Below are positions 8,985 through 24,908 of a DNA stretch of 64,000 nt, in pieces; position 1 is the stretch's first letter; the number at the start of each line of letters is the position of its first letter. The notes under the pieces are model-generated. The model did no database searches and had not been told where the DNA came from. It saw nothing but the letters and a program-made list of their open reading frames with translations. A program made the position numbers and the translations under genes. This DNA is from Actinomycetes bacterium (GTDB lineage: Bacteria; Actinomycetota; Thermoleophilia; Solirubrobacterales; 70-9), in contig BOKP01000004.1 of assembly GCA_016861045.1 (NCBI GenBank), forward strand, positions 186,001-250,000, in the 5' to 3' direction.

Positions 8985-9632
8985 CTAGGCGGCCGGCTCG
9001 ACGAGCCCGGCGCGGAGCGCGACGCACATCCGCGCCAGCGCGCACTCGCCGCAGCGCGGCCGCGGCCGGCAGATGCGCCGACCGTGCTCGATCAGGTTCA
9101 TGTGCAGCTCGTAGGCATCGCCGCGGTCGGTGATCGCGAGCATCTCGTCGTGGGCGCCCTCGAGCGAGATCGCCGGCGGAAACAGCCCGAGCCGGCCGCC
9201 GACCCGGTGGACGTGCGTGTCGACGGGGACCTCGGGGCGGTCGAGCGCGAAGATCATCACGCATGCCGCCGTCTTGCGGCCGACCCCGGGGAGCGAGGTC
9301 AAATACCCCACGGCCTCCTCGCGGGGAGCGGTCCGGAGCCAGTCGAGGTCGGCCTCGTCGCCGAGCTCGGCCAGGACCGCCTGGATCCGCGGCCCCTTCG
9401 TGTTCGCGAGCCCGCCTGGTCGGATCGCCTCGATCACCTCCTCGGCCGGCGCGTCGCGGATCGCCGCCCAGCTCGCGAAGCGGTCGCGCAGGCGCCGGTA
9501 GGCGACGTCGCGGTTGCCGTCGCTGGTGTTCTGGGAGAGGATCGTCAGGACGAGCTCGTGCACCGGGTCGCCGTGCGGGTCGTTGCGGCGGCGGCCGTAG
9601 AGCTCCCGGAGCCGGTCGCGGATGGCCCGCAC
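8985..9632 (-). CDS. nth: endonuclease III (bifunctional DNA N-glycosylase/AP lyase)
   Basis: The 215-residue base-excision repair enzyme removes oxidised pyrimidines. It has a helix-hairpin-helix LPGVGRKTA with catalytic Lys120, the Asp138 region VDTHVHR, and a C-terminal [4Fe-4S] cluster at C188-x5-C194-x2-C197-x5-C203 (E. coli has x6 in the first interval). With the GTG start at 9632, the catalytic Lys and Asp fall at the same numbers as in E. coli Nth (120 and 138), supporting this otherwise unmarked start. No earlier in-frame ATG or GTG exists after the upstream pfkB stop. Confidence 0.93.
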   Translation of the reverse strand: MRAIRDRLRELYGRRRNDPHGDPVHELVLTILSQNTSDGNRDVAYRRLRDRFASWAAIRDAPAEEVIEAIRPGGLANTKGPRIQAVLAELGDEADLDWLRTAPREEAVGYLTSLPGVGRKTAACVMIFALDRPEVPVDTHVHRVGGRLGLFPPAISLEGAHDEMLAITDRGDAYELHMNLIEHGRRICRPRPRCGECALARMCVALRAGLVEPAA

Positions 9633-9760
9633 GCGGCGCCGCGACGGCCGCCTCCAGCCCGGCGGCGGCGAGGTGCGGCGGCGTCGATCGATGTCGTCCC
9701 GCGGCCGCGACTCCGAGCCCGAGCCGGTCGCGCTCGCGTAGCCGCGCTCGCCGCCGCCGC

Positions 9761-10681
9761 TCAAGAGGGGAACGCCTCGAGGTGGGTGCAGGTCCTCGCG
9801 CCGGCCGCTGCCGCCGTCGCGAGGGCGCCCCCGGCGCGGGAGAGGTCGAAGCCGACGTCGGCGAGGCCGGCGGCGAGCGCCCCCATGAACGCGTCGCCGG
9901 CGCCGAGCGGGCTGACGACGGCGACCCGTGGCGGTCGCGCCTCGGCGGCACAGGCGCCGCGCGCGACGGCGAGCCCGGGCCCGGCGGTGACGACGGCGAG
10001 CCCGGGCCCGAGCTCGAGCAGGGCCGCCGCCGCCGCGGCCGCGTCGAGGTCGTCGGCGCCGGCGAGCAGCCGTGCCTCGTCGAGGTTGCAGCGCAGCACG
10101 GCGGCGTCGGCGGCGACCTCGAGGCAGCGCTCGCGGCAGTCGTCGATCGTGCGCCAGCGGCCGGGGCGCAGGTTCGGGTCGAACAGGACCGGGACACCGC
10201 GCCCGCCGGCGGCGGCGACGATCGCGGCGGTGACCGCGCGGCTGCGCTCGTCGACGAGCGTGTTCGAGCCGAAGACGACGGCCGCGGCGCCGGCCGCAAC
10301 CTCCTCCTCGCGTCCCGCCAGCGACGCGATCGCGTCGTCGATGCCGGCGCCGTGGATCTCGAAGCTCGGCTCGAGGTCGGGGTCGAGGCAGGCGAACGCG
10401 AACGGCGTCGGCACGCCCTCGAGCTCGCCGTAGAAGCGCAGGTCGACGCCGGCTTCGGCGAGCCGGCGGCGCAGGTAGCGGCCCCGCCCGTCGTCGCCGC
10501 AGGCGCTCGCGAGGGCGGCGGGGGCGCCGGCACGGCGGGCCGCCACCGCGACGTTGGCGAGCGCGCCGCCGGGGTGGACCTCGAACCGGCTCGCCGCGGC
10601 CGGTTCGGACACGGGGTCGGGGCAGATCAGGTCGACGAGCGCCTCGCCGAGGCAGATCAGGGGCTTGCCGGCGGCGCTCAT
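9761..10681 (-). CDS. PfkB-family sugar kinase (fructokinase/ribokinase-like)
   Basis: The 306-residue kinase begins ICLGEALVDLICPD, the PfkB N-terminal motif, and has the Gly-rich sugar-binding stretch HPGGALANVAVAARRAG. The anion-hole/catalytic motif SPLGAGDAFMG places the base at Asp263. It transfers phosphate from ATP to a sugar; the specific sugar is not evident. Start ATG 10681 is preferred over upstream ATGs because TATCCT lies 7 nt before it on the minus strand, fitting leaderless transcription. It is divergent from the dehalogenase-like gene, with only 25 bp between starts. Confidence 0.88.
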   Translation of the reverse strand: MSAAGKPLICLGEALVDLICPDPVSEPAAASRFEVHPGGALANVAVAARRAGAPAALASACGDDGRGRYLRRRLAEAGVDLRFYGELEGVPTPFAFACLDPDLEPSFEIHGAGIDDAIASLAGREEEVAAGAAAVVFGSNTLVDERSRAVTAAIVAAAGGRGVPVLFDPNLRPGRWRTIDDCRERCLEVAADAAVLRCNLDEARLLAGADDLDAAAAAAALLELGPGLAVVTAGPGLAVARGACAAEARPPRVAVVSPLGAGDAFMGALAAGLADVGFDLSRAGGALATAAAAGARTCTHLEAFPS

Positions 10682-10688
10682 CGCGGCG

Positions 10689-10698
10689 AGGATAGGTT
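10689..10698. promoter_or_regulatory. interlocked divergent -10 boxes
   Basis: AGGATAGGTT carries TATCCT on the minus strand (10694-10689; 7 nt before the pfkB-type ATG) and TAGGTT on the plus strand (10693-10698; 8 nt before ATG 10707). The two hexamers share the TA at 10693-10694, so the promoters cannot be occupied at once. Confidence 0.6.
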
Positions 10699-10706
10699 CT
10701 GGGGCC

Positions 10707-11552
10707 ATGCGCGCGCCGGTCGAGGAGCGATTCGTCGAGGTCGACGGCATCCGGCTCTTCCTCCGCGAGCGCCGCGGCGAGGGGCCGCCGATCGTCTACT
10801 TCCACGGCAACCCGACCGACTCGGGCGATTGGCTCCCGTTCATCGCCGCCTCGACGGAGCCGGCGATCGCCCTCGACCTGCCCGGCTTCGGCCGCTCCGA
10901 GCGGCCCGATCCGAGCGTCTTCGACAGCTCCGTCGGCGCCTACGGCCGGCTGCTCGCGAACGCGCTGGCCGCGCTCGCCCCCGGCGGCTACAAGCTGGTC
11001 GTCCACGACTGGGGCGTGGTCGGGCTCGTTGCCTCGCAGGCGAGGCCCGAGGCCGTTCGGGCGCTGGTCGTGATCAACGCGGTGCCGCTCAGCGCCACCT
11101 ACCGCTGGCACTTCCTGGCCCGCTGCTGGCGCCGGCGCGGGATCGGTGAGCTGCTGGCGCGACCGCGGCCGCGATGGCTGGCGAAGCGGATGATGCGGCT
11201 CGCCCGGCCCGGCAGGCGGCCGCTGCCGGGCGAGCTGGTCGAGCGGATGCTCGCCAACTGGGACGCGGGAATGGCGCGCTCGATACTGGCCCTCTACCGG
11301 TCGGCGGACGGCGACGTCCTCGCCGCCGCCGGCGACGGGCTCGCGGCGATCCGCTGCCCGGCCTTGATCCTCTGGGGCGAGCTCGACCCCTACATCGGGC
11401 CGGCCGACGGCCGGTCGTTCGAGCGCCGGATCTCCGGCGCCCGCTTCGTCACCGTCGAGCGCGCCGGCCACTGGCCGTGGATCGACCGTCCCGAGCTCGT
11501 CGACGAGGTGATCGACTTCCTGGCCGATCCCGGCGCTCCGCCGCCTGGCTAG
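10707..11552 (+). CDS. haloalkane dehalogenase-like alpha/beta hydrolase
   Basis: The 281-residue alpha/beta hydrolase has HGNPTDSGDW (residues 33-42) and nucleophile motif VVHDWGVVG with Asp101, followed by Trp102. The acid is in LWGELDPYIG and the His in AGHWPWIDRPE. An Asp nucleophile in HDWG, with Asn35 of HGNPT and Trp102 as the halide-binding pair, is the haloalkane dehalogenase arrangement; epoxide hydrolases share the Asp but usually not this pair. The real substrate is unknown. Start ATG 10707 sits 8 nt after TAGGTT. The PAP2 gene follows 17 nt after the stop. Confidence 0.82.
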   Translation: MRAPVEERFVEVDGIRLFLRERRGEGPPIVYFHGNPTDSGDWLPFIAASTEPAIALDLPGFGRSERPDPSVFDSSVGAYGRLLANALAALAPGGYKLVVHDWGVVGLVASQARPEAVRALVVINAVPLSATYRWHFLARCWRRRGIGELLARPRPRWLAKRMMRLARPGRRPLPGELVERMLANWDAGMARSILALYRSADGDVLAAAGDGLAAIRCPALILWGELDPYIGPADGRSFERRISGARFVTVERAGHWPWIDRPELVDEVIDFLADPGAPPPG

Positions 11553-11557
11553 CGGCC

Positions 11558-11563
11558 TACAAT
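11558..11563 (+). promoter_or_regulatory. -10 box for a leaderless PAP2 mRNA
   Basis: TACAAT lies 6 nt upstream of the GTG at 11570, so the transcript would start at or next to the start codon. Confidence 0.5.
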
Positions 11564-11569
11564 CGAGCC

Positions 11570-12346
11570 GTGCCCGAACCGCTCGCCGCAATCGGACGGC
11601 GGCTGCCGCGGGGTTGGCCCGACCTCCTGCTGCAGTTCGCGCTCTTCTTCGTCGCCTACCAGGCGTACCAGGTGGTTCGCGGGGTCATCGACGGCAAGAG
11701 CGACCTCGCGTTCGCCAACGCCGAGCTGATCGTCGACGCCGAGCGGTCGCTCGGCACGTTCTTCGAGCCCGGCTTGCAGCGGGCGCTCCTCGGGCACGAG
11801 TGGCTGATCGACGCCGCCAACTGGCTGTACGTGAACTCGCACTTCACGATCACGGTCGTCTTCCTCGCCTGGCTCTACCTGTTCCGCAACGAGAACTTCT
11901 ACTTCGTCCGGAACATGTTCATGGTCGCGATGGGGATCGCGCTGGTCGGCTATGCGCTGTTCCCGACGGCGCCGCCGCGCATGCTCCCGGGCGAGGGCTT
12001 CACCGACACGATCGCCACCTTCACCGCGGTCGACCAGGACAGCAACGCGGTCAGCTTCCTGGTCAACAAGTACGCGGCCGTGCCGAGCATGCACATCGGC
12101 TTCTCGTCGATGATCGCCGGGTCCGCGGTGATGCTCGTCCGCAATCCGCTCGGGCGGATGCTGTGGGCGCTCTATCCGCTGCTCGTCTTCGCGGTGATCC
12201 TCGTCACCGCCAACCACTACTGGCTCGACGCGGCCGCCGGACTGGCCGTCGCGATCTGCTCGGCCCTGGTCGCGAGCCGCGTCCTCGCCCCGGTCCGGCC
12301 CGCGCAGTGGGCGTTCCGCCCGGCGCCCGAGAGCGCCGCGATCTGA
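11570..12346 (+). CDS. PAP2-family membrane phosphatase (inositolphosphotransferase-like, PAP2_3)
   Basis: The 258-residue protein has about six membrane helices and the PAP2_3/Aur1-Ipt1-like motifs FPTAPPRMLP (131-140), PSMHIGFS (172-179) and NHYWLD (215-220). The conserved His and Asp form the phosphotransfer site, facing the outer side in relatives. GTG 11570 was chosen because TACAAT precedes it and the protein N-terminus starts there. The next two genes on the strand are a CDP-alcohol phosphotransferase and inositol-3-phosphate synthase. A role as phosphatidylinositol-phosphate phosphatase or inositol-lipid transferase is therefore inferred, not shown. Confidence 0.82.
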   Translation: MPEPLAAIGRRLPRGWPDLLLQFALFFVAYQAYQVVRGVIDGKSDLAFANAELIVDAERSLGTFFEPGLQRALLGHEWLIDAANWLYVNSHFTITVVFLAWLYLFRNENFYFVRNMFMVAMGIALVGYALFPTAPPRMLPGEGFTDTIATFTAVDQDSNAVSFLVNKYAAVPSMHIGFSSMIAGSAVMLVRNPLGRMLWALYPLLVFAVILVTANHYWLDAAAGLAVAICSALVASRVLAPVRPAQWAFRPAPESAAI

Positions 12347-12389
12347 TATGCGCCGTCCCGCGCTGACGCCGGTGGGCCGATTCCCCGGG

Positions 12390-12395
12390 TAGGTT
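12390..12395 (+). promoter_or_regulatory. -10 box for a leaderless CDP-alcohol phosphotransferase mRNA
   Basis: TAGGTT is placed 6 nt before ATG 12402. Confidence 0.5.
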
Positions 12396-12401
12396 GGGGC
12401 C

Positions 12402-13070
12402 ATGGCCGAGCCGCGACAGCGGGCGGCAGGACGCCGCCGCGCCGAACCCGAGCGAGCGGGCCGCTCCGAGCGGCCGCTCGGCGACCTGCGAGAGAACGCC
12501 CGCAACCGGTTGATCGAGTCGCGGCTGACGCCGAACGCGATCTCGATGACCGGGCTCGTCCTCAACCTCGCCGCCGCCGTCCTGATCCTCGACGACCGGT
12601 TCGTCCTCGGCGCGGTCGCATTCATCGTCGGCTCGATCATGGACACGCTCGACGGGCGCTACTCGCGGATGTCGGGGAAGGGGACGCAGTTCGGCGCCTT
12701 CCTCGACTCGACGCTGGATCGGATCGAGGAGGGGGTCGTCCTCGCCGCGATCTGCTGGCAGTTCGCCGCCGCCGGGGAGGAAGCGCTCGCCGCCGCCTGC
12801 CTGCTCGTCGTCCTCGGCTCGCTGATGGTCTCCTACACCCGGGCGCGCGCCGAGGCGCTCGGGGTCGAGTGCAAGCTCGGCATCGCGACGCGGCCGGTGC
12901 GGGTCGTGGTCCTCTCGGCGGGGCTGCTGTTCGCCGAAGGGGAGCTGATCGGCGGCGTCGACCTGCTGCCGGCGGCGATCTGGGTGATGCTGGCGCTGAC
13001 CGCCTTCACCGTCGTGCAGCGGGTATGGCACGTTCGCAGCAAGCTCATCGCCGCCGCCGGTGACGCCTGA
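12402..13070 (+). CDS. CDP-alcohol phosphatidyltransferase, probable phosphatidylinositol-phosphate synthase
   Basis: The 222-residue integral membrane enzyme carries the CDP-alcohol transferase signature D81-x2-D-G-x2-S-R-x8-G-x3-D102-x3-D106. It matches perfectly except for Ser where Ala is usual before the Arg. These Asp residues bind metal and CDP-diacylglycerol. Actinobacteria join CDP-diacylglycerol to inositol-3-phosphate to give phosphatidylinositol phosphate; the ino1 gene immediately downstream (150 bp) supports inositol phosphate as acceptor over glycerol phosphate. The N-terminal 30 residues are Arg-rich and cytoplasmic. Confidence 0.88.
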   Translation: MAEPRQRAAGRRRAEPERAGRSERPLGDLRENARNRLIESRLTPNAISMTGLVLNLAAAVLILDDRFVLGAVAFIVGSIMDTLDGRYSRMSGKGTQFGAFLDSTLDRIEEGVVLAAICWQFAAAGEEALAAACLLVVLGSLMVSYTRARAEALGVECKLGIATRPVRVVVLSAGLLFAEGELIGGVDLLPAAIWVMLALTAFTVVQRVWHVRSKLIAAAGDA

Positions 13071-13161
13071 GCCGCCGCGCCTTGCTGTAACCGGGTTGGG
13101 GGTATGGTGTTCTCACGGGTCCCGGGAACGCGCGGATTCGCTTGGGCCCGAACGGCCGAGC

Positions 13162-13224
13162 ATGACCGCGATCGACCCGAACCGGGCAGTCACCCAGACC
13201 CAGAAAGGCTTCGCTTACCGATGA
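13162..13224 (+). CDS. 20-residue leader frame coupled to inositol-3-phosphate synthase
   Basis: An ATG at 13162 opens a frame reading [20 protein letters not shown] and stops at TGA 13222-13224, overlapping the ino1 ATG as ATGA. The ino1 Shine-Dalgarno-like AGAAAGG (13202-13208) is 12 nt from its ATG, too far for strong initiation, so coupling through this frame is plausible. No strong Shine-Dalgarno sequence was seen for the leader itself. It may be a chance frame in GC-rich DNA. Confidence 0.35.
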
Positions 13225-14411
13225 GCAACAGCAACGGAGCGCACAGCGGCGGCGGCCACGCCGACGACGGCAAGGTCCGCGTCGCGATCGTCGGCGTCGG
13301 CAACTGCGCCAACTCGTTCATCCAGGGCGTCCAGTACTACAAGGACGCGGACCCCTCCGAGCAGGTGCCGGGGCTCATGCACGTCGACCTCGGCGGCTAC
13401 CACGTCTCCGACATCGAGTTCACCGCCGCCTTCGACATCGACGTCGAGAAGGTCGGCAAGGACCTCGGCGAGGCGATCTGGTCCGGTCAGAACGACACGA
13501 TCAAGTTCGCCGACGTGCCGAAGCTCGGGGTCGAGGTGCAGCGCGGGATGACCCACGACGGGCTCGGCAAGTACCTGAAGCAGAAGATCACCAAGGCCCC
13601 CGGGCCGACCGCCGACATCGTCTCGATCCTCAGGGAGACGAAGACGGACGTGCTCGTCTGCTACCTGCCGGTCGGCTCCGAGCAGGCCACCAAGTGGTAC
13701 GTCGAGCAGGCCCTGAAGGCCGGCGTCGGCTTCGTCAACTGCCTGCCGGTGTTCATCGCCCGCGAGGACTACTGGGACAAGCGCTTCGCCGATGCCGGGC
13801 TGCCGATCATCGGCGACGACATCAAGTCCCAGGTCGGGGCGACGATCGTCCACCGCCAGCTCGCCCGCCTCTTCCACGAGCGCGGCGTCGAGATGCAGCA
13901 CACCAGCCAGCTGAACGTCGGCGGCAACATGGACTTCTTCAACATGCTCGAGCGCGAGCGGCTCGACTCGAAGAAGATCTCGAAGACCAACGCCGTGACC
14001 TCGATCATGGGCACCGAGCTGGAGGACCGCGACGTCCACGTCGGCCCCTCCGACTACGTGCCGTGGCTGACCGATCGCAAGTGGGCCCACATCCGCCTCG
14101 AGGGCAAGAGCTTCGGCGACGTCCCGCTCAACGTCGAGCTCAAGCTCGAGGTCTGGGACTCGCCGAACTCGGCCGGAGTCGTGATCGACGCCGTGCGGCT
14201 GATCAAGCTGGCGCTGAACAACGGCATCGCCGGCCAGCTCGACGGCCCCTCCAGCTACCTGATGAAGTCGCCGCACACGCAGCGGCCCGACGCGGAGGCA
14301 CGCGAGCTCACCGAGGAGTTCATCGCGGCCAATGCCCGCGGCGCCGCCGCGACCCGGGCGAAGGAGGACGTCGACTCGGGTACTGCGGCCGAAGCCCGCG
14401 CCGGAAGCTGA
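13221..14411 (+). CDS. ino1: inositol-3-phosphate synthase
   Basis: The 396-residue NAD-dependent enzyme converts glucose-6-phosphate to myo-inositol-3-phosphate. The Rossmann start [18 protein letters not shown], the conserved [30 protein letters not shown] and [19 protein letters not shown] are characteristic of the actinobacterial/archaeal form. ATG 13221 starts the recognisable protein; a longer frame exists upstream but has no homology. It supplies the acceptor for the upstream CDP-alcohol phosphotransferase. A possible promoter TATGGT at 13102 gives a leader of about 110 nt. Confidence 0.95.
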
Positions 14412-24894: not shown

Positions 24895-24908
24895 CGAACA
24901 TACGTTCG
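24895..24908. promoter_or_regulatory. perfect LexA/SOS box (CGAAC-N4-GTTCG)
   Basis: CGAACATACGTTCG matches the actinobacterial/Bacillus LexA consensus CGAACRNRYGTTCG on both strands. It directly follows a minus-strand -10 box TATAGT (complement of 24909-24914), with TTCGAT 17 nt further up (complement of 24932-24937). LexA bound here would block transcription of the minus-strand gene at 24873. Confidence 0.8.

What the first reader, a model, noticed from the sequence alone, without database searches (positions are those of the whole stretch)
10681..10707. Interlocked -10 boxes drive a divergent pair
The kinase and dehalogenase-like genes start 25 bp apart, and their -10 hexamers (TATCCT minus, TAGGTT plus) share two bases in AGGATAGGTT. 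RNA polymerase cannot open both at once, which forces mutually exclusive initiation, a built-in switch without a regulator.
Basis: partly seen in the sequence, partly recalled or inferred. Interest (0 to 1): 0.5.

Follow-up and report, generated by a model that had tools for sequence, protein, structure and literature searches.

The report
Shared two-way promoter between two genes
Two neighbouring soil-bacterium genes that point away from each other appear to share one tiny overlapping promoter, a compact arrangement that related bacteria often keep, but nothing shows that it works as a built-in on/off switch.

Summary
The start codons are 25 bp apart and AGGATAGGTT (10689-10698) holds a minus TATCCT and a plus TAGGTT sharing the central TA. 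The hexamers lie 7 and 8 nt from their ATGs, where this genome places leaderless-type -10 boxes (spacers 6-9 nt: 55 sites in 402 called genes, against 1.4 per position background). The kinase/hydrolase divergon recurs in 21 distinct loci of the order: 13 of 21 keep the same interlock (A-NNN-TA-NNN-T) with different letters, 6 carry two separate leaderless-type -10s, 2 have only the hydrolase box. In 120 genomes the layout occurs 535 times against 233 for an AT control; of 30 loci inspected from each, 17 versus 1 lie between two coding divergent genes. Best read as a bidirectional promoter of the Warman/Grainger kind (23-bp geometry) serving two leaderless genes. The "switch without a regulator" is not supported: exclusion without feedback only divides initiations, published basal activities are too low for competition (PMC12825309), and related pairs do without the interlock. 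No transcript start has been mapped here. New variant of a known kind; modest interest.

The parts
9761..10681 (-). PfkB-family sugar kinase gene, ATG at 10681
   Evidence: translation; PF00294 E 3.6e-41
10707..11552 (+). alpha/beta hydrolase gene (dehalogenase-like by weak similarity), ATG at 10707
   Evidence: translation; PF12697 E 1.1e-18; NCBIfam dehalogenase models below cut-off
10682..10706 (.). whole 25-bp intergenic region
10689..10694 (-). minus -10 hexamer TATCCT, 7 nt before the kinase ATG
   Evidence: spacing class; TATCCT or TATTCT in same-genus relatives
10693..10698 (+). plus -10 hexamer TAGGTT, 8 nt before the hydrolase ATG
   Evidence: unchanged in both same-genus relatives
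10693..10694 (.). TA dinucleotide shared by the two hexamers (positions -12/-11 of each)
   Evidence: arithmetic
10681..10681 (-). predicted leaderless TSS of the kinase (8 bp downstream of its -10)
   Evidence: inference from spacing; not mapped
10707..10707 (+). predicted leaderless TSS of the hydrolase (9 bp downstream of its -10)
   Evidence: inference from spacing; not mapped

Best explanation
AGGATAGGTT is a bidirectional core promoter. The housekeeping RNA polymerase recognises it in either orientation through two -10 hexamers that share their -12/-11 TA, with no recognisable -35. Each orientation yields a transcript that starts at or within a base or two of the start codon, so both mRNAs are leaderless and the 25-bp gap is close to the smallest that can hold two such promoters. 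At ordinary activity the two directions fire largely independently, at rates set by each half; only strong activation of one side would depress the other. Shown here: sequence, spacing class, conservation, recurrence between divergent genes. Inferred: actual TSSs, sigma factor, activity in both directions, degree of competition.
For: Leaderless-type spacing: TANNNT at 6, 7, 8, 9 nt before called starts 14, 19, 12 and 10 times in 402 genes, background 1.41 per position. Conservation: both same-genus relatives keep the interlock; in a 15-bp core (CGAGGATAGGTTCTG in the window) 14 of 15 columns are invariant in three genomes, whereas four-fold degenerate sites of the flanking genes are 52-63% identical. 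Across 21 distinct kinase/hydrolase divergons 13 have the interlock with start-to-start gaps of 24-29 bp, in versions AGGATAGGTT, AGAATAGGTT, AGGCTATCKT, AGGGTATCTT, ACGTTAACCT, ACGGTATCTT and AGGCTAGTGT; only the A-NNN-TA-NNN-T frame is constant; 19 of 21 have leaderless-type -10s on both sides. Recurrence: 535 against 233 AT-control matches in 120 genomes; 17/30 against 1/30 loci between two coding divergent genes, Fisher p 8e-6; the single control case (L186) itself contains ACGATAGGTT, an interlock. Literature: 23-bp TSS separation is one of the common bidirectional classes (PMC12825309, section read), and the 7-bp rule gives 23 bp here. TANNNT without -35 is the main promoter type in M. 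tuberculosis and closely juxtaposed divergent promoters are called common there (PMC3898074, passages).
Against: No TSS, RNA-seq or reporter data for this organism. In this genome alone the layout is not more frequent than the AT control (4 against 4), and ANNNTANNNT is below the shuffle mean in the window. If TSSs are exactly the ATG A's, they are 26 bp apart, just outside the 7-25 bp working definition quoted in PMC10268837. In 464 kb of this contig it is the only one of 61 called divergent pairs with the interlock at leaderless spacing on both sides. 2 of 21 homologous pairs show a leaderless-type -10 only on the hydrolase side.
Confidence: 0.8

Rival explanations
1. One reading: the interlock is a regulator-free switch that forces the cell to express either the kinase or the hydrolase.
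For: The hexamers overlap, so simultaneous open complexes are implausible; PMC12825309 states that steric constraints prevent simultaneous binding.
Against: All five E. coli cases tested had too little basal activity for competition. A one-site competition model with invented rates gives about 0.99 of the solo rate against a weak competitor and 0.17 for a weak promoter against a very strong one, with no second stable state. 8 of 21 homologous pairs lack the interlock at leaderless spacing. No functional reason for exclusive expression of these two enzymes was found.
Confidence: 0.06
2. Compaction only: two leaderless genes have been pushed together to the minimum gap, and the shared TA is the cheapest way to fit two -10 boxes, because an existing TANNNT needs only one further A, four bases upstream of its T, to carry the opposite box. 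No regulatory role follows. (Compatible with the best explanation; it denies only a regulatory function.)
For: Start-to-start gaps of interlocked homologues are 24-29 bp, near the minimum, and homologues with longer gaps have separate -10s. Interlocked and separate forms sit next to each other in the tree (L019/L055, L081/L080), so they interconvert. The 18-bp overlap class also occurs between divergent genes (12 of 30).
Against: It does not explain why the 23-bp layout is about four times commoner than the 18-bp one, which needs the same number of fixed letters (about 303 against 74 extrapolated real pairs, rough).
Confidence: 0.55
3. Only one direction uses this element; the other gene is transcribed from a promoter inside the partner's coding region, with a leader, and the second hexamer is chance.
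For: TANNNT also occurs by chance (background 1.4 per position in 402 starts); plus-strand GAGG lies 15 nt before the hydrolase ATG.
Against: Both hexamers are kept in the two same-genus relatives and in 13 of 21 homologues at 6-10 nt from both starts. No purine-rich ribosome site precedes the kinase ATG (read), and the GAGG of the plus strand is absent from versions such as ACGTTAACCT and ACGGTATCTT.
Confidence: 0.1
4. Chance word in an intergenic gap.
For: ANNNTANNNT is not enriched in the window or, by raw count of the full layout, in the genome.
Against: Conservation of a 15-bp core amid 52-63% silent-site identity, repeated interlock in 13 of 21 homologues, 17/30 against 1/30.
Confidence: 0.03

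Closest known systems
Prokaryotic bidirectional promoters (Warman, Grainger and colleagues; PMC12825309, PMC10268837; Warman 2021 seen only as a reference)
   Same: One short pseudo-symmetrical element with -10 hexamers overlapping on opposite strands; 7-bp-rule TSS separation of 23 bp, one of the three common classes; lies between divergent genes.
   Different: Both products are predicted leaderless, the element is essentially the whole intergenic region, and in this order the 23-bp form appears commoner than the 18-bp form that predominates in E. coli. No TSS data here.
Leaderless TANNNT promoters of Actinobacteria (PMC3898074, PMC4633059, PMC3160421)
   Same: TANNNT without recognisable -35 at 6-9 nt before ATG/GTG.
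   Different: In the passages I saw they are described one gene at a time; here two share bases.
Closely juxtaposed divergent leaderless pairs in M. tuberculosis, e.g. prpD (Rv1130) / Rv1129c (figure legend in PMC3898074)
   Same: Divergent genes, both leaderless.
   Different: That pair is reported as upregulated together in starvation; its -10 geometry was not examined here.

Membership tests
Bidirectional promoter (Warman/Grainger) | -10 elements overlap or coincide on opposite strands | tested here: met
   TATCCT and TAGGTT share T10693/A10694; conserved in 13 of 21 homologues
Bidirectional promoter (Warman/Grainger) | divergent TSS pair 7-25 bp apart | not testable with these tools
   TSSs not mapped; 23 bp by the 7-bp rule, 26 bp if both starts are the A of the ATG
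Bidirectional promoter (Warman/Grainger) | transcription in both directions from the element | not testable with these tools
   needs TSS mapping or reporters
Leaderless actinobacterial gene (both genes) | TANNNT about 6-9 nt before the start codon | tested here: met
   7 and 8 nt; genome peak at 6-9 nt
Leaderless actinobacterial gene (both genes) | mRNA 5' end at the start codon | not testable with these tools
   no RNA data
Leaderless actinobacterial gene (both genes) | no Shine-Dalgarno site at normal spacing | tested here: inconclusive
   none before the kinase; GAGG 15 nt and GGGG 2 nt before the hydrolase ATG (read, no scoring)
Regulator-free mutually exclusive switch | interlock required for the gene pair | tested here: not met
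   8 of 21 homologous divergons lack it at leaderless spacing
Regulator-free mutually exclusive switch | anticorrelated or bistable expression | not testable with these tools
   needs single-cell dual reporters

The most novel reading that the evidence does not exclude
Leaderless-rich actinobacteria of this order have a recurrent, selected class of fused divergons in which a 10-bp A-NNN-TA-NNN-T element is the entire promoter of two leaderless genes, with the 23-bp geometry preferred over the 18-bp one that predominates in E. coli, and polymerase competition on the shared TA couples the two genes' output or noise.
Probability: 0.2. Interest if true: 0.55.

Novelty: new variant of a known kind. 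Interest (0 to 1): 0.35.

Why it matters
Leaderless start sites fix the promoter a few bases before the start codon, so divergent leaderless pairs offer a sequence-only way to find bidirectional promoters in genomes with no RNA data. The conserved frame with changing letters gives a natural set of variants for testing whether sharing a -10 affects the expression ratio or noise. If the 23-bp preference holds, the geometry of bidirectional promoters depends on the translation-start mode of the organism.

Tried and rejected
Switch model: rejected as an inference (see rivals). Consensus sigma-70 scan of 9500-12000: none found, as expected for -10-only promoters. ANNNTANNNT enrichment in the window: not enriched (3 against 7.3). 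Whole-genome layout count: equal to the AT control (4 and 4); only the coding context of the hits separated them. Abutting hexamers (ANNNTATANNNT): 26 sites in 120 genomes (summed by eye), 13 of 24 loci inspected between two coding divergent genes, so abutting -10s also exist. The 18-bp layout: 185 sites, 105 for the backwards control, 12 of 30 loci between coding pairs; so the interlock is the commonest but not the only compact layout. Some TA-pattern hits look like LexA boxes (e.g. L159), which inflates the 535. Tree of the 21 pairs: interlocked and separate forms are intermixed; a deep node has support 0.07 and several others are below 0.8, so the ancestral state is not decided. Literature searches for leaderless bidirectional promoters returned no paper describing this exact layout in their listings; that is not proof of absence, since Warman 2021 was not held and only listings were seen for most hits. 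Limits: gene calls are my own codon-usage caller trained on this contig and applied to other genomes; the 30 inspected loci per pattern are the first place of the first genomes listed, not a random sample; L148 and L155 are the same gene pair by their first residues.

Full report
What is there. The window lies on a 2.70-Mb genome; its own GC is about 73%. Named records that hold relatives of the hydrolase are mostly deposited as Solirubrobacterales, Solirubrobacteraceae or Actinomycetota. At 10681 a PfkB-family kinase starts on the minus strand and at 10707 an alpha/beta hydrolase starts on the plus strand, with 25 bp between. AGGATAGGTT at 10689-10698 contains TATCCT (minus) and TAGGTT (plus) sharing TA. 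'Dehalogenase-like' is a weak label: the haloalkane dehalogenase models match well below their cut-offs.

Are these -10 boxes? I called 402 genes in 464 kb of the same contig (window plus 400 kb) with a simple codon-usage caller. TANNNT ends 6, 7, 8 or 9 nt before a start 14, 19, 12 and 10 times, against a mean of 1.41 per position at 16-44 nt. This is the leaderless signature known from M. tuberculosis, where TANNNT without a conserved -35 dominates (PMC3898074, passages seen) and, in mycobacteria, an ATG or GTG at the 5' end suffices for translation (PMC4633059, passages seen). A survey abstract puts leaderless genes above twenty percent in Actinobacteria (PMC3160421, abstract). The two boxes here sit 7 and 8 nt from their starts, inside the peak.

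Is it conserved? The divergent kinase/hydrolase pair was found in 36 loci (of 82 loci holding a hydrolase match), 21 after removal of duplicate loci. A script that allows any in-frame start and 5-10 nt spacing found the interlock in 13 of 21, two separate leaderless-type boxes in 6 of 21, and a box on the hydrolase side only in 2 of 21; in one of those two (L035) the interlock is present but the kinase start lies farther away. The middle letters change freely between lineages while A, TA and T stay in place. Between the window and its two same-genus relatives 14 of 15 core columns are invariant although four-fold degenerate sites of the two genes are only 52-63% identical. Interlocked and separate forms are intermixed in a tree of the 21 pairs, with sister pairs that differ.

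Is it a class? In this genome the full layout (start-like triplet, 6-9 nt, ANNNTANNNT, 6-9 nt, start-like triplet) occurs at 4 places, as does a control with AT in the middle. But 3 of 4 lie between two coding divergent ORFs, against 0 of 4 for the control. In 120 genomes of the order at least 90% complete, with ATG on both sides, there are 535 sites against 233 for the control; TA exceeds AT in 81 genomes and falls below in 22. Of the 30 loci inspected for each, 17 and 1 lie between two coding divergent genes, and the one control case itself contains an interlock. An 18-bp overlap layout (185 sites, 12 of 30 inspected) and abutting boxes (26 sites, 13 of 24 inspected) also occur. The interlock is thus one of several compact layouts and by this rough count the most frequent, about four times the 18-bp one. 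In the 464 kb it is rare: 1 of 61 called divergent pairs.

How it probably works. Bidirectional promoters are known across prokaryotes; in E. coli TSS separations of 18, 10 and 23 bp are common, and opposing polymerases cannot bind together (PMC12825309, section read). With the usual 7 bp from -10 to TSS this site gives 23 bp; if both TSSs are the A of the ATG it gives 26 bp, just beyond the 7-25 bp working definition (PMC10268837, passage seen). I therefore read the element as a bidirectional core promoter of the 23-bp type serving two leaderless genes.

Why not a switch. Exclusion at one site only divides initiations. A minimal competition model with invented rates gives almost no interference at low activity and strong interference only when the competitor is very strong; it has a single steady state. 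[quoted passage not shown]). In M. tuberculosis a divergent leaderless pair, prpD/Rv1129c, is upregulated together in starvation (figure legend). And 8 of 21 homologous pairs here do without the interlock at leaderless spacing. From general knowledge of polymerase footprints (recalled), separate divergent -10 boxes 20-45 bp apart would also clash, so exclusive binding is not special to the interlock.

Standing. The mechanism is a known kind, in a leaderless form. The regulatory claim is untested and unlikely as stated. The decisive experiment is TSS mapping plus a dual reporter with box-specific changes.

Noticed in passing
window 24895-24908: CGAACATACGTTCG resembles an actinobacterial LexA (SOS) box (consensus recalled), upstream of an HTH-like ORF (24873-24175, minus) and shortly before tRNA-Glu (24973). 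Such boxes also match ANNNTANNNT and contaminate the pattern counts.
   Followed up: partly
window 11559-14411: Downstream of the hydrolase, TACAAT lies 6 nt before a GTG at 11571 (another leaderless-type start) of a membrane-protein ORF; then ORFs that look like a CDP-alcohol phosphatidyltransferase (12402-13070) and an inositol-3-phosphate synthase (13104-14411); names by eye, no family search.
   Followed up: no
L127 (G000:C1:807591-807621) and L128 (G000:C1:1022278-1022311): Two more interlocked pairs in the same genome: AGTCTATGCT between a nucleotide-binding oxidoreductase-like gene and a 142-aa ORF (the same ten letters are listed in G002, G012 and G019), and ACGCTACCCT between a sigma-factor-like gene and an FAD amine-oxidase-like gene (names by eye).
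   Followed up: partly
L035 (divergent kinase/hydrolase pair): The interlock AGGCTATCGT is kept but the kinase start is about 43 nt away, with an inserted GC-rich inverted repeat (by eye); the kinase would have a leader there.
   Followed up: no
G029, control column: The backwards control pattern occurs 90 times in one genome (0-4 in the others), suggesting a dispersed repeat family.
   Followed up: no
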